From contig NZ_JAUSUZ010000002.1 of the NCBI RefSeq assembly GCF_030813715.1, positions 1 through 62,067 on the forward strand: a stretch of DNA of 62,067 bases, read 5' to 3'. The stretch comes from Catenuloplanes indicus (GTDB taxonomy: Bacteria; Actinomycetota; Actinomycetes; Mycobacteriales; Micromonosporaceae). Of this stretch, positions 1 through 62,067 are shown one piece after another (within the stretch, counting starts at the first letter, position 1; each line of letters begins with the position of its first letter). The position numbers were made by a program, and so were the translations under genes. Below the pieces are notes generated by a model. It saw only the letters and a list, made by a program, of their open reading frames with translations, made no database searches and was not told the origin of the DNA.

Positions 1-105
1 CTGCACGTGGCCGCAACCGGCCGTGTCGACCCGTACGCCGCGCAGCTGCTCGCACTCCCGTACGCAGATCGTGACGGATACCGGGACGAGTGGCGGCCCG
101 CGTGA
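1..105 (+). CDS. C-terminal end of an unknown protein (5' truncated)
   Basis: The frame opening at the first base runs for 34 codons and stops at the TGA at 103-105. The tail contains PYAAQLLALPYADRDGYR and ends EWRPA. I do not recognise the family. The stop overlaps a GTG start by 4 bp, the coupling used throughout this element, so the gene probably belongs to the same transcript as the packaging genes. Too little remains for a functional call. Confidence 0.45.
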   Translation: MHVAATGRVDPYAAQLLALPYADRDGYRDEWRPA

Positions 106-326
106 CCGCACAGTGGCTCGTTACCCTCGACCTGGCCGCGACGTACCTGGCCCAGTCGTTCGGGCAGGACGTCACCGAGGAGCGCATCCGCCAGTGGATC
201 AGCCGCAGCAAGACGCCCGCGAACCCGGAGGGCGTCCCACGGCGAGGCTCCGAAGGCCGGCGCGCGCTCTACGACCTCCGAGACCTCATCACGCTCGCGG
301 AGACACGACTTACCGGTACGGGATAA
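102..326 (+). CDS. small HTH protein, possible terminase small subunit
   Basis: A 74-residue protein with a MerR/excisionase-like winged-helix pattern: LAATYLAQSFG, then EERIRQWISRSK, then a basic loop and RALYDLRDLITLAE. Such short DNA-binding proteins directly before TerL are often the packaging-site recognition subunit (Nu1/TerS type). That role is inferred from position only; an excisionase-like regulator is the alternative. I chose GTG 102 because it overlaps the previous stop as GTGA; an in-frame GTG at 90 would add four residues. Confidence 0.5.
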   Translation: MTAQWLVTLDLAATYLAQSFGQDVTEERIRQWISRSKTPANPEGVPRRGSEGRRALYDLRDLITLAETRLTGTG

Positions 327-442
327 CACAGCTTGACACCAGCCAGGACCAGGTGTCACAGTTCATTTCGATGTTGGCGGTTCATGCCCAAAGCGGCGTG
401 GCCGCCATTTCTCGTATCTGACCCAGCACGGCGAGGTGAGCC

Positions 443-2500: not shown

Positions 2501-4654
2501 ATGAGCGCCCCCACCCGGCTCCGCGGGCACGTCTCCGACGCGCTCAGCGGGTACGCCGACATCCTCGACGACATCACGACCGAGTACATCCCTGACCTGA
2601 CCTGGCCGCTCAGCGTCCAGACGTACGCGCAGATGCGCCACGAGAGCCGTCTGTCGTCCGTCCTCGACGGCTGGACGCTTCAGCTCCGGCGCGCGCAGTG
2701 GCAGGTCGACGGCCGCGGCTGCCGACCCGAAGTCGTCAAGCTCGTCGCGGACGGTCTGGGCCTACTCGTCGCCGGACAAGACCCCGCCGGCGCCGCTCGG
2801 CTGCAGGGTGTGTCGTGGAACGACTATCTGCGGACCTCGCTGCGAACCTCGGCGGCGTTCGGTCACGTCGGGCACGAGCTTCAGGCGGAGGTAGTCGACG
2901 GGACCGCCCACCTGGTCGCTCTCGCAGATCGGATGCCTTGGACCATCTCCCGGATCCACGTCGATCCGAAGCGCGGGACGCTGCTCGGCGTCACCCAGGA
3001 CGGCGTTCACCGCGATGACCGGCCGCAGATCCCCGCCTCCCAGCTCGCCTGGCATGCGCGCGAGCGGGAGGGCATCGCCTGGCAAGGCCGTTCGCTGCTG
3101 CGGGCGAGCTACCCGGCGTGGCTGCTCAAGCGCGAGATGCTGCGCACGAACTCGATCGCTCACCGCCGCTGGGCCGCTGGCATCCCGGTCGCGCAGGCCC
3201 GGCCCGGCTCGAACCCGAGCCCCGGTCAGATGGCCGAGGCGCAGCGTATGGCGTCCGCCGCGCGTGCCGGTGACGTGGCCGGCGTGGCGATGCCGCAGGA
3301 CTTTGAGCTGGTCATTCAGGGGATCGCTGGTCAACTGCCTGACACGCTCGGCTTCATCCGGTTTCTGAACCAGGAGATTGCCGGCGCGGCCCTGATGCCG
3401 CATCTCGACCTAGGCACCAGCCAGTCCGGGTCGCGCGCGCTCGGAGAGTCGTTTATCGATAGCTGGACGCTCGCGCTGGAGGCTTGGGCGACGGAAACCG
3501 CGGACGTGGCGACTCGCCAGATCGCGGCTCGGATCGTCGAGTGGAATTTCGGGTCAGACGAGCCGGTGCCTTCCGTCGTGGTGTCCGGGATCGGCTCCCG
3601 CCGCGAGGTCACCTCCGAGTCCCTTAACTCGCTGCTGTCGTCCGGCGCACTCTCGGCCGACCCGGCGCTCGAGGCGTGGATCCGCCGCGAATGGCGGCTC
3701 CCTGAGCGGGACCCGGACGCGCCGAAGCCGCTGAACGCGACCGGCGTGGACCTGGCCAAGCCAGACTCGACGGCAGACGGCGAGCAGGGTGACGACTGGG
3801 GGCTGCTCGACGACGAGGCCGCCGTGCCGGTTAAGGCTGCACAGCGGTCCCGCCGCCGCAGCAACCCCGACCAGATGAGCCTGTTCGGTGACGGCCACCC
3901 GGTGCAGGCCGCGGCCCGTCCGGAGACGCCTGAGCAGATCCAGGCCCAGTGGGAGGCGGCACGCGCTGAGCTGCTGGCCGCCTGGCCGAAGACCGCGGCA
4001 CCGCTCGTGACGGAACTTGCCGCGCAGGCCGAGACGGCGGTCGCCGACGGTGACCTGCCCCGACTCGGGCAGCTCGCCGCGTCCGCCGGTGTCATCGCAG
4101 CTCAGGCCGCGATGCTCGGCAAGGGCGGCACGAAGCTCGCCCGGCAGGCCGCGGCCGGTGTGGTGGCTGAGGCCGCCGCGCATGACGTGATCGTGAGAGC
4201 TGGCGACGCGGGTGCGGCGAAGGTAAACGCGACAGCTGAGGCGGTCGCGCACATCATCGCCGCCGGGTATGCGTCCGGTGCTGGCCGGATCGCGCTGCAG
4301 CACGCGGGCGCCGACCCGGAGTCGGTCCGGGATGCCGTCGAGCGGCACCTGGATGCGCTGTCGACGGCGCAGCGCGGCATGGTCGCCGACCAGCTCGGTG
4401 CCCTGCTGTCCGCAGCCCAGCATGCTGGCCGCCTGTCGGTGCTCGAGCGAGCCCCGAAGGGGACGACGTTCCGGGCGTCGGAGTGGGCGGACGAGAAGCG
4501 CTGCGACGCCTGCGACGCCGTCCACGGCAAGACGTATCGGACGCTACGGGCCGCACTCATCGACTACCCGGCGAGCGGCTACCGCAACTGCGAGGGCGGG
4601 CCCGGACGCTGCCGCGGGCACATCGCCGCGGACTGGACCGCCAAGGCGCGTTGA
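2501..4654 (+). CDS. portal protein fused to a MuF-like head morphogenesis domain
   Basis: A 717-residue protein. Roughly residues 1-400 look like a DUF935/Mu gp29-type portal (WPLSVQTYAQMRHESRLSSVLDG cut short here by length: note the blocks YAQMRHESRLSS, SWNDYLRTSL, RALGESFIDSW). After a charged linker near residue 430 comes an alanine-rich helical region. The last 60 residues carry CDACDAVHGKTYRT and YRNCEGGPGRCRG, the Cys/His-rich end typical of MuF domains. Family knowledge: the portal is the dodecameric DNA gate and MuF assists prohead assembly; usually they are separate genes. ATG 2501 follows GAGGGGGACGG. Confidence 0.85.
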   Translation: MSAPTRLRGHVSDALSGYADILDDITTEYIPDLTWPLSVQTYAQMRHESRLSSVLDGWTLQLRRAQWQVDGRGCRPEVVKLVADGLGLLVAGQDPAGAARLQGVSWNDYLRTSLRTSAAFGHVGHELQAEVVDGTAHLVALADRMPWTISRIHVDPKRGTLLGVTQDGVHRDDRPQIPASQLAWHAREREGIAWQGRSLLRASYPAWLLKREMLRTNSIAHRRWAAGIPVAQARPGSNPSPGQMAEAQRMASAARAGDVAGVAMPQDFELVIQGIAGQLPDTLGFIRFLNQEIAGAALMPHLDLGTSQSGSRALGESFIDSWTLALEAWATETADVATRQIAARIVEWNFGSDEPVPSVVVSGIGSRREVTSESLNSLLSSGALSADPALEAWIRREWRLPERDPDAPKPLNATGVDLAKPDSTADGEQGDDWGLLDDEAAVPVKAAQRSRRRSNPDQMSLFGDGHPVQAAARPETPEQIQAQWEAARAELLAAWPKTAAPLVTELAAQAETAVADGDLPRLGQLAASAGVIAAQAAMLGKGGTKLARQAAAGVVAEAAAHDVIVRAGDAGAAKVNATAEAVAHIIAAGYASGAGRIALQHAGADPESVRDAVERHLDALSTAQRGMVADQLGALLSAAQHAGRLSVLERAPKGTTFRASEWADEKRCDACDAVHGKTYRTLRAALIDYPASGYRNCEGGPGRCRGHIAADWTAKAR

Positions 4655-4706: not shown

Positions 4707-7700
4707 ATGACCGCCCCGACTGTCGACCTCGCGCGCCGTGAGGGCGTCGAACTCGTCCGGACCGGCCGGTGGGAAACCATGACCGGCTCGTGGACGCCGA
4801 CCGCCGAGGACATCGCCGCGGCCGTTGACGCCCAGTCGTGCCCGGCGATCCGCAAGCCGGTCGTGAAACTGGGCCACACCGATGCCCGGTTCGCGGTCGG
4901 GGACGGCGAACCGGCGCTCGGCTGGTTCGAGAACCTCCGTGCGACCGACGGCGGCAGCACGCTCGTCGGCGACCAGGTGACGCTGCCGTGGCTGCACTCC
5001 GTCCAGGCCGCCGCGTACCCGTCGAGGTCGATCGAGGGCAACTACAACCACCGTTGCGGAGCCGGCCACGTCCACAAGTTCGTGCTGACCGCGGTCGCAC
5101 TGCTCGGGGTGACGCCGCCGGCAGTGAAGACGATCCGGAACCTGAATGACCTGCCCGGGATGCTCGGCGTGGCCGCGTCCGATCCGGACGTGCCGGAGGG
5201 CGCCGAGCGCGTGCAGGTGACCATCATGGCCCGCCGGCGTGCCGAGGACTTCGACGAGGGCAGCACCAAGCGCGACGCTGGCGGCCGGTTCTCCCGCGTC
5301 GACACGAACGACGGACCGGAAGGTCGCGGGGCCTCATCCGGGGGCAGTCGGACTGCTGGCGGGTCCGGCAGCAGCGGCTCGTCCAGCGGCAGCGCGGGCG
5401 GAAGCTCGCCGAAGCCCGCCGCACCGCTGAAGGACTCACTGAAGATCGGCGACCGGATCCAGCTCCGCGACGGCGAGACCCTCGCCGGTGGTGCGCAGGT
5501 TGACGGCACTGAAGGTGTCGTGAAGGTCGCCGTGGTCGACAGTCCGACCGGCCGGCGCCTCCACATCGGCCTCAACCCGCCCGAGGTCGACGACGGCGAC
5601 GATGACCTCGACAGCGATGCGGCTGAGAGTGACGACGACAGCGACGACGACGAGGTCTCCGAGCCCTGGTCCGGGAATCAGGACGAGTGGACCACCGTGC
5701 TCGACGAGACGGGAATCGGCGCGCTCCACGCGGCGCTGCCGCAGATGCTCGACATGGGCCGTCAGGGCGCCGAGCACCAGAAGTCGTTGGAGAAGCGCGG
5801 CTCTGACCTGGAGAAACGCGAACGGGCCTTGATCAACTCCCAGTATCCGGGTCTGAACGCGGCAGGTAAGAAAGAGCTCCAGAAGATCGACGTTCGGTCT
5901 GCTGACGTGTCGTCGCGCCTGAACCAGGAGCAGGAGCGTGCCCAGCGCCGCATCGAAGAGCTGCGGCCCGAGGACCGTCAGCGGGTCGCGCGGGCAGAAC
6001 CCGGCGAGGCACGAGGGGCATACCGCGAGGCGTACCTGGCCGCACATCCGGGTGAGGAGAAGACCGCCACCACCTACTCGTTCCTGTACGCGCAAGGCCT
6101 GGAAAAGCAGGGGGCGCTGTCGGCGGAACGGCAGGCGCTCGAAGCCCGCCGCAGCGAACTGACGGGTGACCCGCAGCCGCTCACCCCCGAGGCGCAGGCC
6201 GAGCTCGCCGAAGTCCGGGATGCGATCCGCCGCAACGACGGCGAGATCGGCGACTTCCTCGACGAGAGCTACCTGACCGACGGGGTCGTGTCCGGTGAGT
6301 GGGGTGACCTGGTCTACCAGGCGGTCATGACGGACAGCGGGCCGCGGTATTCGCTGTCACTGCGTCCGCCCGGTGCGCCTGCCGACTGGGAGCCGGACGA
6401 CGGAAGCGCCGCCGTCGACTTCAACAACACCGCCTTGAAGAAGCTCGGGGCACTGCTGGACAAGGTGGTCGGCTCGTCGAGTGTGCAGGCCGCCGCCGAG
6501 GTCCACACCGGCGCGATGGTCGCGCTCATCCCGACGCCTGAGGACGCGGCGCGGCTCGCGGTCGGCGGCGGCGAACCGGCCGAGCAACTGCATGTCACGC
6601 TGGCGTATCTCGGTGAGGCCGCGGACCTGGGGGTGGCCGGCCAGCAGGACGTCATCGACGCGGTGTCAGCGGCGGCGAACGGCCTGCCGGTCATCGAGGC
6701 CGAGGCGTTCGCTCCCGCCCTGTTCAACCCGGGCGACGCCAGCGACCGTGATCCGTGCGCGGTGTTGCTGCTGTCGGGGGAGTGGCTGGACATCGTCCAC
6801 TCGCTCGTCGCCGGCGCGCTCTACGACGCGCCGATGCCGGACCAGCACCGGCCGTGGATCCCGCACCTGACCGCCCGGTACGCCGACGGCGTGGACGCGC
6901 TCGCCGCGCTGGCCGAGCGCGTCGGCCCGGTCCGGTTCGACCGGCTCCGGATCGCGTTCGCCGGCCAGACGCTCGACATTCCGCTCATCGGTAGCGCCGG
7001 CCCGGACGAGCCGCTCGACGAGGCCGAGGCGGTCGCCGCCGCGGCCGGGAGTGGGAAATCGCTGAAGTCGTGGTGGCTGCACGGGCCCGGGCTGAAGAAG
7101 TGGAAGTCCTGGACGGATCTCTACAAGCACCTACGGACCAAGGTCGATCCGGCGTTCGCGAAGCGGATCGCGTCGGAGTGGTTCCACGAGCGCTACGGCT
7201 ACTGGCCTGGCGACAAACGCAACCGCAAGGTCGCCGCAGCGGCCGAGCCCACGATTCTGCCGGCCGCCGAGCCGGACCCATCCACACCCGAGGAGGACAT
7301 GGTGTCCACCCTGCACGCAGACCTGCGCGCGCGGCTCGGCCTGGCCGACGACGCCGACGAGCAGGCGATGCTCACGGCGCTCGACGCGCTCAAGTCGAAG
7401 GCCGACTCGCCGCAGCCGACGCCTGAGATGGTCGCCGCGTCGGCCGCCGCAACCGACAAGGCGGAGAAGGCTGAGGCCGCGAACCAGGTCATGAAGGAGG
7501 AGCTCGCGAAGGTCCGCGACGAGCTCAACACCATCAAGGCCTCCGCGGCGCAGACCGTCAAGGCCAGCTTCTTCGACGGGCTGCTCGCAACCGGCCGGCT
7601 CAAGCCCGCCGACCGGGCCACATGGGAGGACCGCTACGACCGCGACTCGGAGATGGTCACCGACATCCTCGGCGGTCGTGGTGAGGGCTCCGAGGTGCCG

Positions 7701-7811
7701 GTCATGGCATCCGGCCACACCGGTCCGGCCGAGCCGGACGCAGACACCCTCGACAGCGAGTACGAGCAGCTCGTGTCCGCTGTCGACGCACCGACCCGGA
7801 AGGCGGCCTGA
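4707..7811 (+). CDS. prohead protease-scaffold polyprotein with embedded 2H phosphoesterase
   Basis: A 1034-residue multidomain protein. Residues 1-165 resemble the Mu gpI prohead protease (VVKLGHTDARF, YPSRSIEGNY, VALLGVTPPAV). A Ser/Gly linker, an acidic Asp/Ser tract near residue 300 and a coiled-coil region follow. Residues about 604-760 are a 2H phosphoesterase (LigT-like) domain with both catalytic HxT motifs: HVTLAYLG (H629, T631) and PHLTARY (H720, T722). Next is a small Trp-rich module (WLHGPGLKKW, ASEWFHERYGYWPG), then a coiled-coil scaffold-like C-terminus. The protease should process the shell and remove scaffold. The phosphoesterase substrate is unknown; 2'-5' or cyclic oligonucleotides are possible. 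Confidence 0.82.
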   Translation: MTAPTVDLARREGVELVRTGRWETMTGSWTPTAEDIAAAVDAQSCPAIRKPVVKLGHTDARFAVGDGEPALGWFENLRATDGGSTLVGDQVTLPWLHSVQAAAYPSRSIEGNYNHRCGAGHVHKFVLTAVALLGVTPPAVKTIRNLNDLPGMLGVAASDPDVPEGAERVQVTIMARRRAEDFDEGSTKRDAGGRFSRVDTNDGPEGRGASSGGSRTAGGSGSSGSSSGSAGGSSPKPAAPLKDSLKIGDRIQLRDGETLAGGAQVDGTEGVVKVAVVDSPTGRRLHIGLNPPEVDDGDDDLDSDAAESDDDSDDDEVSEPWSGNQDEWTTVLDETGIGALHAALPQMLDMGRQGAEHQKSLEKRGSDLEKRERALINSQYPGLNAAGKKELQKIDVRSADVSSRLNQEQERAQRRIEELRPEDRQRVARAEPGEARGAYREAYLAAHPGEEKTATTYSFLYAQGLEKQGALSAERQALEARRSELTGDPQPLTPEAQAELAEVRDAIRRNDGEIGDFLDESYLTDGVVSGEWGDLVYQAVMTDSGPRYSLSLRPPGAPADWEPDDGSAAVDFNNTALKKLGALLDKVVGSSSVQAAAEVHTGAMVALIPTPEDAARLAVGGGEPAEQLHVTLAYLGEAADLGVAGQQDVIDAVSAAANGLPVIEAEAFAPALFNPGDASDRDPCAVLLLSGEWLDIVHSLVAGALYDAPMPDQHRPWIPHLTARYADGVDALAALAERVGPVRFDRLRIAFAGQTLDIPLIGSAGPDEPLDEAEAVAAAAGSGKSLKSWWLHGPGLKKWKSWTDLYKHLRTKVDPAFAKRIASEWFHERYGYWPGDKRNRKVAAAAEPTILPAAEPDPSTPEEDMVSTLHADLRARLGLADDADEQAMLTALDALKSKADSPQPTPEMVAASAAATDKAEKAEAANQVMKEELAKVRDELNTIKASAAQTVKASFFDGLLATGRLKPADRATWEDRYDRDSEMVTDILGGRGEGSEVPVMASGHTGPAEPDADTLDSEYEQLVSAVDAPTRKAA

Positions 7812-8283: not shown

Positions 8284-9219
8284 ATGCCGGGCGCTTACCC
8301 TCCGGCAGCGGCAACGCTGTCCGGCACCCTCCTGACCATCGACCGCCTGCTGCGGAACCCGACGTTCCTGGCCCGGCGCCTGCGCGGCATCCCGGATCTG
8401 CGGTTCGTCGCCGACCAGATCCTCACCCGGAAGATCAAGGCCAACGGCGGTGCCGCGATGGCCGAGACGGGCGAGCCGATCGTGAACTCCCGGCCGATCG
8501 AGTCGATCGCGCCCGGCGGCGAGTACCCGCGGGACAGCCCGGCGGACGGCACCGCGATGCTGGTCAAGGTCAGTAAGTGGGGTGAGGCGACCCCGCTGAC
8601 CGACGAGAAGATCAAGCGGTCCGTGTACGGCGGTGACGAGGTCGACCGGTCGCTGCGCAAGGCCGCGAACACGATCATCACGAAGGTAGACCGGCTCGCC
8701 ACGTCCGCGATGGGTTCGCTGGTCACCGCGACGAGTGCCGCCGCCGCGACGTGGGACAACGCGTCGGCGCTGCTGTTCCGGGACGTGGAGAAGGCCGCGG
8801 CGAAGGTCGTCGACCTCAACCAGGGTTTCCGGCCGAACACGCTGCTGATGTCGACGACGAAGTACGCGATGCTCGTCACCGACCCGGCGATCGCCGCGCT
8901 GCGCCGCCGCGAGGCGACCGACAACCCCATCTACGGCGGGGACATCGAGTACATCGGCAAGTACCGGATCATCTCGACGTCGGTCGGGAACCTGCCCCGG
9001 GACTCGGTGTGGGTGTTCGACGACAACGAGCTCGGCGGCATGGCCGACGAGACCGAGGTCGACCCGGGCTACGCGACGATGGACAACGGCCTCCAGTTCA
9101 AGGTCATCCGCGTGGACTCGCGGGACGCCTGGGACATCCAGGCCCGCCGGATCACCGCCCCGATGGTCACCGAGCCGGGCGCGGCCATCGAGATCACCGG
9201 CACGGGGAGCCTGGGCTGA
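8284..9219 (+). CDS. major capsid protein (HK97-like fold)
   Basis: A 311-residue protein with an E-loop-like segment (GEYPRDSPADG), PLTDEKIKRSVYGGDEV, the spine-helix region RSLRKAANTIITKVDRLA, an A-domain beta region (VFDDNELGGMADETEV) and a C-terminal strand (FKVIRVDSRDAWDIQARR). Size and order fit the main shell subunit. No large N-terminal delta domain is present, as expected because scaffold is supplied by the preceding polyprotein. ATG 8284 has GAAAGGAG seven bases upstream. It would be the most abundant virion protein. Confidence 0.85.
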   Translation: MPGAYPPAAATLSGTLLTIDRLLRNPTFLARRLRGIPDLRFVADQILTRKIKANGGAAMAETGEPIVNSRPIESIAPGGEYPRDSPADGTAMLVKVSKWGEATPLTDEKIKRSVYGGDEVDRSLRKAANTIITKVDRLATSAMGSLVTATSAAAATWDNASALLFRDVEKAAAKVVDLNQGFRPNTLLMSTTKYAMLVTDPAIAALRRREATDNPIYGGDIEYIGKYRIISTSVGNLPRDSVWVFDDNELGGMADETEVDPGYATMDNGLQFKVIRVDSRDAWDIQARRITAPMVTEPGAAIEITGTGSLG

Positions 9220-12112: not shown

Positions 12113-15100
12113 ATGGCCACCAGGTTGTATCTGGGAAATGCTGCCGCCAGCTACACCCCGACGACGAAGCGTGGCGCCTGGGACAACTCCGCGGCGACGC
12201 TTGCCCGCCGCCTCAGCCCTGTCCCCGAGGGCGCGGCGGCGACCGCGGCGATCGCGGAGACGTCGGCGACGAACGCGTTCGACGTGCTGTGGGGCCGGTG
12301 GATCTCGGATCCGGCGATTACGGCCGGGACGCTGTCCGGGACCGTGCAGTGGATCGCGGGCGTCCTCGAGAGCAACACTGCGGCGAACGACTTCTTCCAT
12401 GTCCACATCTTCGTCACGGCCGGTGATACGGACACGGTCCGCGGCACGCTGCTGACGAACAACATCGGCGCGACCGAGTTCACCACCACGGCGACCGGCC
12501 GCGGCGAGGGCGCGAAGACGGTCACGAACGTCGCCGTTCAGGTCGGGGACCGGATCGTCGTCGAGATCGGCTACGTCGCCAACAACACCGTCACGACCAG
12601 CTACACCGGCACCCTGCACTACGGCAACACCGGCACCGCCGACCTCGCTCAGGGCGGCACAACGGTTACCACGTCGCCCGGCTGGGTCGAGTTCTCCGGC
12701 GCTGACGGGCTGTTCTACCCCCGCACGCAGTCGCTCACCGACGCGTTCTCCGGGCTGATCTATGCGAACCCGCCGTGGGACGGGCCGTACGGCGGCGCCG
12801 ACCTACTCGCCGGCCAGGCCCGCGTCCCGGTCGCCCACACCGCGGGCACCCCGGCGTACGCGGGTGTCTACTCCACGCCGGCCAACCAGGCGCAGCGCTG
12901 GCATTTCGCGGATTCCAGCATCTACTGCGAAGTCCCGGTCGTCCCGGCCGCAGGCGGCAGCACCGGCACCGTCTACGCCCAGCTCGCCGTCACCGCCACC
13001 ATGTACACGCTCGGCAGCTACGCGGGCGTGTTCTACGACGCGGTCAGTAACGTCATCGTCTTCCAGAACTGTGTCGACTACTCCGACCCGACTGCCGCGT
13101 TCATCCCCTACGACCCGGTCGCGCACCGCTGGTGGCGGCTGCGGCACGCCGCGAACGTCCTGTACTGGGACACGTCACCGGACGGCACAACCTGGACCAA
13201 CCAGCGCAGCCTAAGCCCGGCGCCGTCGTGGACGAACTACAACGGCCTCGGCATCCTCCTCGAAGGCGCCCGCGACTCCGGCACCAACGACTACGTCCAC
13301 TTCGACAACGTCAACACCCCGGCGGCGGCCTCGCACGCCGGGTCCGCAACCCTGTCGGCCGCCTCCGGCCTGACCGCGGGCGGTGCCACCACCGCGGCCG
13401 GCACCGTTGCGCTGAGCGCGACGTCCGGGCTGACGGCGGCGGCAGACCGGGCCGTGCCCGCCACGGCCGGCCTGTCTGCGGCGTCCGGCCTCACGGTGTC
13501 GGCAACCCGCGGCACCACCGGCGCTGTATCGCTGTCCGCCGCGAGCGGGCTGACCGCGGGCGCCGTACGGCAGGTGCCGGCCGGCACAGCACTGTCGGCA
13601 TCGTCCGGGCTCACCGCGGGCGGCGCGGCAACGGCGGCCGGTGCGGCCGCGCTGTCGGCGGCATCGTCACTGGCGGTGGCAGCAGTCCGGGTCACGCCAG
13701 GTGTCGCAGCACTGTCCGCAGCGTCAGGTCTTACCGCCGGGGCGACCGCAGCATCCGGCGGCACGGTCATGCTCGGCGCCGCATCGTCCCTCACCTCGGC
13801 CGCAGTACGCGCCCAAGCCGGTGCGGCGACTCTGTCCGCCGCCAGCGGCCTGTCCGCGGTGGCGGCAGCCGGTGCGGGCGCGGCGACCACCCTTTCGGCC
13901 ACCTCGAACCTCACCGCCGCCGCTCTGCGCACCGCAGCCGGGGCCTCGACGCTCTCTGCCGCGTCCAGTCTCGCCGCAGGCGGGCAGCGGACGGCGGTCG
14001 CCGCCGTACTGCTCTCCAGCGGATCGTCGCTGACAGCGGCAGGCGACACGACAGCGATCGTCGGCGCCCTACTCTCCGCCGCCTCACACCTGACCGCAGC
14101 AGGAACCCGGGTAGCGTCCGGTGCCGTCACGCTGTCCGCGATGTCGGCTCTCACGGCCGGCGGCATGAGTACGGCATCGGCGGCAGCAGCACTGTCCGCG
14201 GCATCGACACTCGCCGCGTCTGCTACTCGCGTCACCGCCGCCGGTGCCATGCTCTCCGCCTCGTCAACGCTCACGGTGTCGGGCAGCAGCGGCGCGGACG
14301 TTGGCGCCATCCTGTCGGCTGCGAGCAGCCTCACCACCGCAGGTGTCGGTACTACGGTCGGCGCGGCCACGCTCTCCGCCACCTCGGCGCTGTCCGCTGC
14401 GGGCGTGCGCGGCACATCGGCCGCTGCGGCACTGGCCGCAGCCAGCAGCCTCGCCGCCGCCGGTATCCCGGCGCGCGCCGCAGCCGCACTCCTATCCGCG
14501 GCCAGCACGTTCTCCGCCAGCGGAATCAGCATCCGGCCCGGCGCGGCCCAGCTCTCGGCGGCATCAGCCCTGACCGCGGACACCGCCGGGTCCAGTTCGG
14601 CCACCGCGATCCTGTCTGCCACCTCCGTGCTGTCCGCGGCGGCCGGCCGAGCTGCGATCGCCGCAGCGACGCTCTCCGCCAGCAGCGGCCTGGTAGTCGC
14701 CGCCGTGGCCACCGGGCAGGGTGCAGTCGTGCTTGCGGCAGCCGCCGGGCTCACCGCCGAAACCGTTCCCGCCCGGTTCGCGAACGTCATGCTCGGCGCG
14801 GCCAGCAGCCTCGCCGCGGACGGGACGCGCGGGGCGAACGGCCTGGCCGTCATGTCCGCAGCGACCACGCTCTCTGCAGACGGGCACACCTCCGCCGGCA
14901 GCACGGTGCTCCTCACCGCGGCCAGCGCACTCGAAGCGACCGCCGGCCGGGGCCTCGTAGGCGCGATCACCCTCACCGCCGGCTCTCACCTCGGCGCGGG
15001 CGGCACCCTCGTCGGCGGGGCGGCAGCCCAGCTCTCCGCCGCGACCCTGCTTTTGGTGACCGCCGTTCCGGACGTGTTCCAGCCCGGCCGGCTCGTCGCC

Positions 15101-15205
15101 GTCCTCATCCGGCCCGGCCTGACCGCATCTACCGCCCGCGCCCGGCTCGTGGCGGACACCGGCCGGCGGCGCCTGCACGCCTACACCTCCGAGGGGGCCC
15201 CGTGA
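12113..15205 (+). CDS. giant repeat fibre protein with lectin-like N-terminus
   Basis: A 1030-residue protein. Residues 1-205 form a beta-rich virion-binding region; about 205-405 resemble a concanavalin/LamG-like sandwich (FADSSIYCEVP, WWRLRHAANVLYW, DYVHFDNVN). From residue 412 there are 28 tandem units of exactly 20 residues, consensus AxLSAASxLTAxGxRxxxGA, then a degenerate 29th and a non-repeat basic end (RARLVADTGRRRLH). The repeats predict a long beta-solenoid or fibrous shaft. It likely works as an adhesion appendage. ATG 12113 follows GGTAGGGGGTCGGCG. It ends overlapping the connector gene by 4 bp. Confidence 0.7.
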   Translation: MATRLYLGNAAASYTPTTKRGAWDNSAATLARRLSPVPEGAAATAAIAETSATNAFDVLWGRWISDPAITAGTLSGTVQWIAGVLESNTAANDFFHVHIFVTAGDTDTVRGTLLTNNIGATEFTTTATGRGEGAKTVTNVAVQVGDRIVVEIGYVANNTVTTSYTGTLHYGNTGTADLAQGGTTVTTSPGWVEFSGADGLFYPRTQSLTDAFSGLIYANPPWDGPYGGADLLAGQARVPVAHTAGTPAYAGVYSTPANQAQRWHFADSSIYCEVPVVPAAGGSTGTVYAQLAVTATMYTLGSYAGVFYDAVSNVIVFQNCVDYSDPTAAFIPYDPVAHRWWRLRHAANVLYWDTSPDGTTWTNQRSLSPAPSWTNYNGLGILLEGARDSGTNDYVHFDNVNTPAAASHAGSATLSAASGLTAGGATTAAGTVALSATSGLTAAADRAVPATAGLSAASGLTVSATRGTTGAVSLSAASGLTAGAVRQVPAGTALSASSGLTAGGAATAAGAAALSAASSLAVAAVRVTPGVAALSAASGLTAGATAASGGTVMLGAASSLTSAAVRAQAGAATLSAASGLSAVAAAGAGAATTLSATSNLTAAALRTAAGASTLSAASSLAAGGQRTAVAAVLLSSGSSLTAAGDTTAIVGALLSAASHLTAAGTRVASGAVTLSAMSALTAGGMSTASAAAALSAASTLAASATRVTAAGAMLSASSTLTVSGSSGADVGAILSAASSLTTAGVGTTVGAATLSATSALSAAGVRGTSAAAALAAASSLAAAGIPARAAAALLSAASTFSASGISIRPGAAQLSAASALTADTAGSSSATAILSATSVLSAAAGRAAIAAATLSASSGLVVAAVATGQGAVVLAAAAGLTAETVPARFANVMLGAASSLAADGTRGANGLAVMSAATTLSADGHTSAGSTVLLTAASALEATAGRGLVGAITLTAGSHLGAGGTLVGGAAAQLSAATLLLVTAVPDVFQPGRLVAVLIRPGLTASTARARLVADTGRRRLHAYTSEGAP
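13346..15085 (+). repeat. 28 tandem 60-bp coding repeats plus one degenerate copy
   Basis: The 60-bp period is exact at the protein level from A412 onward, with no insertion or deletion for 28 units (13346-15025), then a decaying 29th (15026-15085). Units are strongly diverged in DNA, so the array is old and kept by selection rather than fresh slippage. Leu at positions 3 and 9 and small residues between them are most conserved. Confidence 0.9.
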
Positions 15206-29858: not shown

Positions 29859-30039
29859 CATGCCGGGCGCCCGCCGGACCATAGTCAGGCATGGACGTGC
29901 CGGACGGGTTCTGGGCCACTGTTATCGACCTGACGTGCTGCTCTATGCCGGTCATTCTTGTCGTGCTGCTTATCGTGCTATTCGCCACAGTCAGGCAGGG
30001 GCAGCGCGATGAGTTCCCCCCGTTTCGACGGAGCGGTGG

Positions 30040-30954
30040 TTACCTGCTTCCGGTCGGGGCAGGGGTGAGGTTATCTGGCTCGGTGTGGGCGTGCCAGGCG
30101 GACTCGTATTCGTCCGGGCTGAGGTAGCCGAGTTCCTTCTGGATGCGGCGGGTGTTGTACCAGGTGTCGATATACTCGAAGATCGCGTTCTCGGCCTCAT
30201 CGCGGGTCCGCCACGACGTTCGGTAGACCAGTTCGATCTTCAGCGTCGACCAGAAGTTCTCCATCAGCGCGTTGTCGAACGAGTCACCGACCGACCCCAT
30301 CGACGGCCGGATTCCGTTGTCCTGCAAGCGCTGTGAGAAGCGGAAACTCGTGTAGTTCGATCCTCTGTCGCTGTGATGTATGAGCTGGCCGTCGCGGACG
30401 TCACGCGACCAGATGCCGTACTCGAGGGCGGCCAGGATCAGATCGGTATCGCACCGGTCGGAGGTCTTCCACCCGACGATGCGGCGGGAGAACACGTCGC
30501 GGACGGCGGCCAGCCAGAACACGCCCTCGCCGCACGGGATCCGGGTGGCATCAGCGACCCACAGACGGTTCGGGCCGGTCGCGGTGAACTGGCGGTTGAC
30601 CAGATCCGGCGCCGGCGTGTGCGCGGGATTCTGCTTCGTTGAGCCGCCGCGCCAGCCGCGGCGCAGGAACGCCCCGTGCCAGCCCTGGCCGGCCATCAGT
30701 CGCTCGACACGCTTGCGGCCGACCCGGATGCCGTCACGACGCAGCTGCCGATGAATGCGGTCGGCGCCGTAGGTGAAGCCGGACGCTTCCCAGATCTCAT
30801 AGATGTTGGAGAGCAGCCCGAGGTCGACCAGGTCCCGGTCACAGGGCTGTTTGGCCTGCCTGACCCACTGGTAGTAGGTCGACTCGGCGATGTTGAGAAC
30901 CCGTAGCAGGAGCGCGACCGCGAAGCAGTCACGGTGTTCGTCGATGAACCTCAT
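30040..30954 (-). CDS. IS3-family transposase, OrfB (DDE catalytic part)
   Basis: A 304-residue protein with the IS3 HTH_21 region (GFTYGADRIHRQLRRDG) and an rve-type catalytic core: WVADATRI (D135), HHSDRGSNY (D196) and NALMENFWSTLK (E232). All three acidic residues and the following K are present, so it looks functional. Its ATG overlaps the orfA stop. In this family the active enzyme is usually an OrfAB fusion made by frameshift; here ATGA coupling could instead give a separate OrfB. Confidence 0.95.
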   Translation of the reverse strand: MRFIDEHRDCFAVALLLRVLNIAESTYYQWVRQAKQPCDRDLVDLGLLSNIYEIWEASGFTYGADRIHRQLRRDGIRVGRKRVERLMAGQGWHGAFLRRGWRGGSTKQNPAHTPAPDLVNRQFTATGPNRLWVADATRIPCGEGVFWLAAVRDVFSRRIVGWKTSDRCDTDLILAALEYGIWSRDVRDGQLIHHSDRGSNYTSFRFSQRLQDNGIRPSMGSVGDSFDNALMENFWSTLKIELVYRTSWRTRDEAENAIFEYIDTWYNTRRIQKELGYLSPDEYESAWHAHTEPDNLTPAPTGSR

Positions 30955-61419: not shown

Positions 61420-62067
61420 CTACCACCGGTGCTGGCGCCACTGCCAACGATTCCGCAGGTCATGCCACCGATTCGACAATCCTCCGCGCTGGTTCATCGA
61501 CCGTACGTAGGCGGCATGATGCGGATGCCTTTGCAGTAGATCAACGAACTCGCGCAACTCCACTGCGGCGTCAAAGGAGCGGCCGTCCAAGACCGCCGCC
61601 CTCGTCCGGTCCACGAAGGCGTTCAGGACCGGATCGTCGCTGACCTGCAATGCACGCATCAGTGCAGGGATATGATCGTCAATCAGGGCCCGCAGGTGCG
61701 CGAGGAACCTTTCTTCGCCGTCGGCGTCAATGAACGGTAGCTCCGCTGGAAGCGTGTGCTCGTCCATGAAGTCGAGCCCGTCCCACCGCATGTGAAGAAC
61801 TTCCTTCAGTCCATGGCAGTGCACCGCATGCAGGGGCGGGTGAGGCAAGGCGGAGCTATGGAGCATACGGTTTGCCGACCGCTCCGGAGCCGCCAGGAGG
61901 GCGGTGGCGGCATGGATTTCGCGTCGCCACTTGCGTGCTGCCAAGACGACGGCATCCTTGCGCTCTTGGGCTCGCTCGCTGGCGGCCGCCCGGTTGAACA
62001 GCGTGGCCGCGATCAGCGCCGTGGTAGAGAAGCCGGTCGCCCCGGACAGCAGGTTGACGAAGTACGG
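61420..62067 (-). CDS. membrane-anchored unknown protein (5' truncated by window end)
   Basis: The frame is open from 61420 to the window edge, 215 codons without a start in sight. An N-terminal hydrophobic helix (NLLSGATGFSTTALIAATLF) is followed by RAAASERAQERKDAVVLAAR and a helical cytosolic part (HTLPAELPFIDADGEERFLA, LRALIDDHIPALMRALQVSD, FDAAVELREFVDLLQRHP). Base composition is less GC-extreme than the phage genes and its orientation differs from the cluster beside it, so it may be host DNA at the element's edge. Confidence 0.55.
   Translation of the reverse strand, partial: PYFVNLLSGATGFSTTALIAATLFNRAAASERAQERKDAVVLAARKWRREIHAATALLAAPERSANRMLHSSALPHPPLHAVHCHGLKEVLHMRWDGLDFMDEHTLPAELPFIDADGEERFLAHLRALIDDHIPALMRALQVSDDPVLNAFVDRTRAAVLDGRSFDAAVELREFVDLLQRHPHHAAYVRSMNQRGGLSNRWHDLRNRWQWRQHRW

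What the first reader, a model, noticed from the sequence alone, without database searches (positions are those of the whole stretch)
6516..6990. 2H phosphoesterase domain embedded in the prohead protease-scaffold polyprotein
Both HxT motifs (H629/T631 and H720/T722) are intact between the protease and scaffold regions. The 2H superfamily includes LigT and the phage anti-CBASS enzyme Acb1, which destroys cyclic nucleotide signals. Inside this polyprotein the enzyme would be made with, and perhaps packaged in, the head, and could enter the next host with the DNA. A virion-borne signal-degrading enzyme would be new.
Basis: partly seen in the sequence, partly recalled or inferred. Interest (0 to 1): 0.85.

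Follow-up and report, generated by a model that had tools for sequence, protein, structure and literature searches.

The report
Enzyme module inside phage-head polyprotein
A prophage in what is probably an actinobacterium carries an intact-looking nucleotide-cutting enzyme domain as an optional module between its head protease and its head scaffold, which fits (but does not prove) an enzyme loaded into the particle and delivered into the next cell.

Summary
ORF 4707-7811 (1034 aa) is a head maturation protease-scaffold polyprotein; residues 601-760 (6507-6986) model confidently as a 2H phosphoesterase with H629/T631 and H720/T722 in place. Relatives occur in 407 phage records, often annotated 'RNA ligase' or 'capsid maturation protease'. 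By sequence and fold it is nearer LigT/ThpR-type phosphodiesterases than Acb1.

It looks like optional head cargo. Of 125 distinct relatives, 97 share an ORF with a head-protein family, 25 lie near one, 3 are unresolved. Of 70 distinct related proteases, 17 carry it. One phage contig keeps a 2H stub joined to a replacement domain. Scaffold alone is predicted to start internally (AGGAGG, GTG 7302).

Virion-borne 2H domains fused to MuF or portal, countering nucleotide signalling, were already proposed in print (PMC5512222, PMC9503650), so 'would be new' is not right. The protease-2H-scaffold form, slot exchange and internal start were not seen in my paper searches. Catalysis, packaging, injection and substrate are untested. 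Novelty: new variant of a known kind; interest 0.5.

The parts
4707..7811 (+). polyprotein gene, 1034 aa: maturation protease - middle region - 2H - small helical domain - scaffold
4722..5186 (+). head maturation protease domain (residues about 6-160)
   Evidence: PHROG 3894, 8.7e-69; 14 aligned relatives with invariant H57 and S108 among others; assignment of catalytic residues not tested
5424..6266 (+). middle region: small beta domain (residues 240-290) and helical bundle (334-520), function unknown
   Evidence: full-length model, low overall confidence but helical part about pLDDT 90
6489..6500 (+). AAAE (residues 595-598) just before the 2H fold; candidate processing site, a lead only
   Evidence: AAA[ED] within 16 residues upstream in 58 of 124 relatives against 30 of 2480 random windows; low-confidence part of the model
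6507..6986 (+). 2H phosphoesterase domain, residues 601-760
6591..6599 (+). first HxT motif, H629-V-T631
6864..6872 (+). second HxT motif, H720-L-T722
7053..7229 (+). small helical domain of PHROG 6439, often beside the 2H domain in relatives
   Evidence: PHROG 6439, 3.1e-10; 58 profile hits in the loci, duplicates included
7291..7304 (+). predicted internal ribosome-binding site AGGAGG (7291-7296) and GTG start (7302-7304) for scaffold alone
   Evidence: sequence only: (SD match of 6 nt or more in 50 of 69 homologues against 14 of 265 control places)
7302..7811 (+). scaffold part (residues 866-1034 and stop), long helix 906-961
   Evidence: PF10123 and PHROG 2976/328; model
2501..4654 (+). 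portal protein gene, upstream neighbour
   Evidence: PHROG 113, 1.2e-48
8284..9219 (+). major capsid protein gene, downstream
   Evidence: PHROG 1650, 4.1e-69

Best explanation
The domain is a catalytically competent, LigT-like 2H phosphoesterase carried as optional head cargo. Shown by sequence or model: it lies between protease and scaffold, is a compact fold with a disordered linker before it, keeps its catalytic His/Thr residues, is absent from most related proteases sampled, and its kin recur in or beside unrelated head proteins. Predicted from DNA: scaffold is also made alone from an internal start, so the enzyme rides only on the long form. Inferred: the long form enters the procapsid through its scaffold end; the protease cuts the linkers; the compact enzyme stays in the head, is ejected with the DNA and, in the next cell, hydrolyses a cyclic-phosphate, 2'-5' or cyclic oligonucleotide made by host defence (or trims RNA ends).
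For: 2H model pLDDT 92.2, nearest solved folds are active 2H phosphodiesterases. H629, T631, H720 unchanged in 125 of 125 distinct relatives, T722 in 89 of 125; in the genome set, whose search patterns held neither motif, 39 of 39 for the first three. 97 of 125 share an ORF with a head family and 25 more lie near one. 17 of 70 related proteases carry it; in all 15 with both flanks it lies between protease and scaffold. Partner changed repeatedly: 24 label changes on the tree. Internal start signal 50 of 69 against 14 of 265. ADP-ribosyltransferase domains, a known kind of head-packaged effector, occur in 35 of 125 of the loci. Same proposal for MuF and portal fusions in print.
Against: No virion proteomics or enzyme data seen. 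Scaffold and protease pieces often leave the maturing head, and the cargo could leave with them. T722 is lost in 36 of 125 relatives, though in 0 of 14 protease-fused ones. No SMODS-type CBASS cyclase in the host genome, although the target would be in other hosts. 21 of the 94 profile-based fusions rest only on profile P859, whose function I did not settle. The full-length model is weak.
Confidence: 0.5

Rival explanations
1. RNA-end enzyme: it opens 2',3'-cyclic phosphates on cleaved tRNA or mRNA (repair or decay) and the head position serves only late expression or delivery.
For: Nearest families by profile and fold are RNA 2',3'-cyclic phosphodiesterases (LigT/ThpR) and Usb1. PMC5512222 offers a Usb1-like RNase role for these domains.
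Against: PMC5512222 states that these 2H versions were never seen with RNA ligases. I did not search the window for repair partners. Fusion to head proteins is not needed for repair in the producing cell.
Confidence: 0.25
2. Protease-tethered antidote: the enzyme works in the producing cell, erasing a nucleotide alarm raised when a defence system senses the prohead protease to which it is attached; packaging is incidental.
For: A review passage reports that the Bas13 prohead protease interacts with a CBASS sensor (PMC12409349). Here protease and candidate eraser are one polypeptide.
Against: Relatives are as often fused to MuF, which has no protease role known to me, and some stand alone. No SMODS cyclase in this host. 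The original CBASS paper was not held.
Confidence: 0.12
3. Structural or binding role: the domain binds nucleic acid or nucleotide during assembly and catalysis does not matter.
For: It stays near head genes in most relatives and T722 varies in 36 of 125.
Against: Both His and the first Thr never vary in the set, also 39 of 39 in the set not conditioned on them. 53 of 70 related proteases do without it.
Confidence: 0.1

Closest known systems
2H domains of phage polyvalent/head proteins (PMC5512222, section 20 read whole; PMC9503650, section 21 read whole)
   Same: 2H domain fused to head proteins of phages, proposed to be packaged or injected and to counter nucleotide signalling
   Different: those texts name MuF and portal partners; here the partner is a Mu-I-type protease and scaffold, with an exchangeable slot and a predicted internal scaffold start
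LigT/ThpR RNA 2',3'-cyclic phosphodiesterases
   Same: 2H fold and HxT motifs; best structural and sequence neighbours
   Different: far below the TIGR02258 cut-off (17.3 against 65.7 bits); part of a head polyprotein
Acb1 anti-CBASS nuclease
   Different: no Pfam Acb1 match for the window domain; Acb1 is a small stand-alone protein; its base-stacking residues were not compared
Phage Mu gene I/Z protease-scaffold (recalled; PF10123)
   Same: protease and scaffold in one ORF, with scaffold predicted to start inside it
   Different: enzyme and middle region inserted between them
T4 Alt, a head-packaged ADP-ribosyltransferase (as told in PMC5512222, passages)
   Same: logic: an enzyme carried in the head and injected with DNA
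   Different: unrelated enzyme; packaging of the window domain is not shown

Membership tests
2H phosphoesterase superfamily | two H-x-T/S motifs | tested here: met
   H629/T631, H720/T722
2H phosphoesterase superfamily | bilobal 2H fold | tested here: met
2H phosphoesterase superfamily | phosphodiesterase activity | not testable with these tools
   needs a purified protein
PF13563 2_5_RNA_ligase2 | score over the curated cut-off of 27 bits | tested here: met
   28.4 bits on the isolated domain, but 25.2 on the whole protein; 90 of 105 relatives match at E 0.01
ThpR/LigT equivalog (TIGR02258) | score over the curated cut-off of 65.7 bits | tested here: not met
   17.3 bits on the domain, 12.3 on the protein
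Acb1 (PF23474) | match to the Acb1 family model | tested here: not met
   no match for the window domain up to E 1; 16 of 105 relatives match at E 0.01, best 6.2e-6
Acb1 (PF23474) | aromatic base-stacking residues and C-terminal lid (PMC9117128, passages) | not tested
Acb1 (PF23474) | cleavage of cyclic oligonucleotides | not testable with these tools
   needs an assay
head-fused 2H of polyvalent proteins | 2H domain in one polypeptide with a phage head protein | tested here: met
   fused to head maturation protease and scaffold
head-fused 2H of polyvalent proteins | partner is MuF or portal, as named in the two papers | tested here: not met
   partner is protease-scaffold in the window; MuF or portal in many relatives
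head-fused 2H of polyvalent proteins | packaged in the virion and injected | not testable with these tools
   proposed in print, no data seen
Mu-I-type protease-scaffold (PF10123) | score over the curated cut-off of 25.2 bits | tested here: met
   26.1 bits
Mu-I-type protease-scaffold (PF10123) | scaffold translated from a start inside the protease gene (recalled from Mu) | tested here: inconclusive
   signal present and enriched, 50 of 69 against 14 of 265; translation not shown

The most novel reading that the evidence does not exclude
The protease-scaffold gene holds an exchangeable cargo bay: enzymes swapped into the slot between protease and scaffold are drawn into the procapsid by the scaffold end, cut free by the protease itself and ejected with the DNA. 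The 2H cargo erases the nucleotide alarm of host defence, possibly including one that senses prohead proteases, so that trigger and eraser arrive as one polypeptide.
Probability: 0.2. Interest if true: 0.85.

Novelty: new variant of a known kind. Interest (0 to 1): 0.5.

Why it matters
If the domain is in virions, head assembly genes of actinophages would double as a delivery system for enzymes that act on host nucleotides, hidden in hundreds of records under the names 'RNA ligase' and 'capsid maturation protease'. Cultured Streptomyces phages carry a relative fused to MuF, so the printed 2017 prediction can be tested by virion proteomics and an enzyme assay.

Tried and rejected
Acb1 membership: rejected for the window domain, though 16 of 105 relatives touch the model. 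A true ligase: not favoured; the match is to the 2H fold for which 'RNA ligase' is a historical name (recalled). Pseudo-enzyme: not favoured. The two motifs as proof: rejected, about one HxT is expected from composition. AAAE as a demonstrated cleavage site: kept as a lead only; linkers of GC-rich genomes are rich in Ala. Virion proteomics in print: (listings) and passages of PMC3706429 and PMC5513430; I saw nothing on this domain. A printed protease-2H-scaffold arrangement: (listings, some capped: 25 of 37, 10 of 309) and the passages read; none seen, in an open-licence library only. Other passages read: PMC7824862, PMC7302621, PMC11722364. CBASS in the host: no SMODS match; other defence families were not searched. 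The overlap of the 407 records with 2H and the 154 with this protease was not computed. The full-length model (pLDDT 63.3, pTM 0.31) was used for linkers and domain limits only. Phmmer of the window domain alone against PDB sequences found nothing real.

Conditioning and dropped rows: the viral scan used a pattern that contains the first HxT motif, so H629/T631 conservation is partly built in for those loci; the second motif was not in it, and the genome scan used neither. One search kept 80 of 386 relatives and one search kept 80 of 154, best first. Identical cores, copies of the window locus and sequences with X were dropped before counts; one upstream stretch of 125 was too short. Fusion labels come from profiles I built by iteration on these loci; ten loci first counted as 'neither' were reviewed with annotations and PHROGs, which moved seven. 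Tree: three changes may be one gain and two losses, and some labels may be incomplete at contig ends.

Full report
Observation. ORF 4707-7811 encodes 1034 residues. Residues 6-158 match head maturation protease PHROG 3894 (8.7e-69); residues 862-1002 match PF10123, Mu-like prophage I protein (26.1 bits, cut-off 25.2). Between them residues 595-774 match PHROG 18402 (head maturation protease) and 595-760 PHROG 2659 (RNA ligase), both near 1e-30, and the isolated domain passes the PF13563 cut-off (28.4 against 27; the whole protein reaches 25.2). H629/T631 and H720/T722 are the only H-x-T/S triplets in the protein; about one HxT is expected from composition, so the motif pair alone would be weak evidence. 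The gene lies between a portal gene (2501-4654) and the major capsid gene (8284-9219).

Family and contexts. tblastn finds the domain in 407 of 50,697 phage records at E 1e-3, from Mycobacterium, Gordonia, Streptomyces, Arthrobacter, Rhodococcus, Mycolicibacterium and Microbacterium phages; listed annotations include RNA ligase, capsid maturation protease, MuF-like fusion, portal and hypothetical. Scans of viral contigs and bacterial genomes and ten annotated phage regions gave 125 distinct domain sequences. By profiles that I built, 94 share an ORF with a head family and 21 have one elsewhere in the locus; 21 of the 94 rest on profile P859 alone, a region whose PHROG matches are annotated head maturation protease, virion structural protein or portal and whose role I did not settle. 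Of the other 10, L106 and L113 are fused to portal PHROG 12 and L144 matches PHROG 859 beyond the 2H domain; L025-L028 lie near a portal or virion protein gene. L020, L039 and L121 stay unresolved. The commonest arrangement is MuF-2H-P859 (34 of 125). ADP-ribosyltransferase domains occur by my profile in 35 of 125 loci, in 10 of them in the same ORF; all four such proteins given to Pfam matched PF03496 (L011; L092, L105, L138).

Catalytic residues. In the 125 sequences H629, T631 and H720 never vary; T722 is T in 89, C in 29, A in 4, S in 2, R in 1. T722 is T in 14 of 14 protease-fused members, 22 of 47 MuF-fused, 0 of 10 with a portal-profile hit and 52 of 53 others. The scan required the first motif; in the genome set, not conditioned on either motif, the first three residues are kept in 39 of 39 and T722 in 17 of 39.

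Optional cargo. A separate scan with the protease domain gave 70 distinct polyproteins, from the best 80 of 154 relatives: 17 have the 2H domain, 53 do not; of these 53 one is cut by its contig end and one has no recognised scaffold. In all 15 with both flanks found, 2H lies between protease and scaffold. In 2H-less members the slot usually holds another domain of about 100 residues: 36 of 55 distinct slot sequences show a strict VEDVRR-type motif, 47 if S or A before it is allowed (my count by eye). Three such proteins gave no Pfam match in that region. In L211 about 20 residues of the start of a 2H domain are followed in frame by that other domain, which looks like a scar of exchange in one contig. 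A maximum-likelihood tree of the 125 domains needs 24 changes of partner label, 5 for the protease-fused group, at least 3 of them on well-supported branches; gains and losses are not told apart.

Expression and release. At the start of the scaffold 50 of 69 homologues have a Shine-Dalgarno match of 6 nt or more before an ATG or GTG, against 14 of 265 control places in the same ORFs. In the window this is AGGAGG 7291-7296 and GTG 7302. The encoded residues there differ between homologues (EED, KED, EGGS and others), which favours a nucleotide signal; the sequences are related, so the counts are not independent. The low-confidence full-length model (pLDDT 63.3) has stretches under 50 at 175-249, 565-600 and 840-870. 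AAA[ED] stands within 16 residues before the 2H fold in 58 of 124 relatives, against 30 of 2480 random windows: a candidate processing site, not a demonstrated one.

Known work. PMC5512222 (section 20 read whole; other passages) describes 2H domains fused to MuF or portal in phage polyvalent proteins and proposes that they act as RNases or degrade nucleotides of counter-invader systems. PMC9503650 (section 21 read whole; passages) says that MuF and portal fusions suggest packaging and injection to counter oligonucleotide signalling, and notes Nudix domains fused to the capsid-processing serine peptidase. I saw no 2H between protease and scaffold in the listings or the passages read. PMC12409349 (passages) reports that the Bas13 prohead protease interacts with a CBASS sensor; the original paper was not held. 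Acb1 data are from passages of PMC9117128.

Host. The window is contig C2 (62,067 bases) of a two-contig assembly of 9,247,015 bases. Its first 400 bases and the polyprotein gene also occur on C1 at 9168917 and 9173623, its last 400 bases at C1 18369. Since C1 must be about 9.185 Mb, C2 probably bridges the two ends of C1 and the prophage is one locus; this is an inference. All 40 genome relatives bear actinobacterial names, so the host is probably an actinobacterium. No SMODS-type CD-NTase was found in it.

Verdict. Domain and architecture are as good as certain; catalysis is likely; packaging is about even odds; the substrate is unknown. New variant of a known kind, interest 0.5.

Noticed in passing
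L211:5857-7473: Slot holds about 20 residues of a 2H start followed in frame by the VEDVRR-type domain, like a scar of domain exchange.
   Followed up: partly
L196, L211, L168 and many of the L160-L230 protease loci: An unnamed domain of about 100 residues (VEDVRR...) fills the slot between protease and scaffold when 2H is absent; three proteins scanned gave no Pfam match there.
   Followed up: partly
L010, L014, L116, L138, L145: Several ADP-ribosyltransferase domains in and beside MuF proteins next to the 2H gene (PF03496 confirmed in L138).
   Followed up: partly
MuF- and portal-type relatives, e.g. L033, L041, L047: The second motif is HxC or otherwise changed at T722 in 36 of 125 relatives.
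   Followed up: partly
window 12113-15205: ORF of 1030 aa made largely of degenerate LSAASGLTA-like repeats.
   Followed up: no
window 30000-30400: Stretch with near-identical copies elsewhere on C1 (91-100% identity at three places), probably an insertion element inside the prophage.
   Followed up: no
window 1-400 and 61668-62067: Both ends of the window match the two ends of the other contig, so C2 may be a bridge across an assembly gap.
   Followed up: partly
window 7053-7229 and related loci: PHROG 6439 domain of unknown function often accompanies the 2H domain, before or after it.
   Followed up: no
L032 (Gordonia phage Kabocha): Order portal, small gene, 2H 'RNA ligase', VIP2-like ADP-ribosyltransferase: two candidate injected enzymes side by side.
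   Followed up: no
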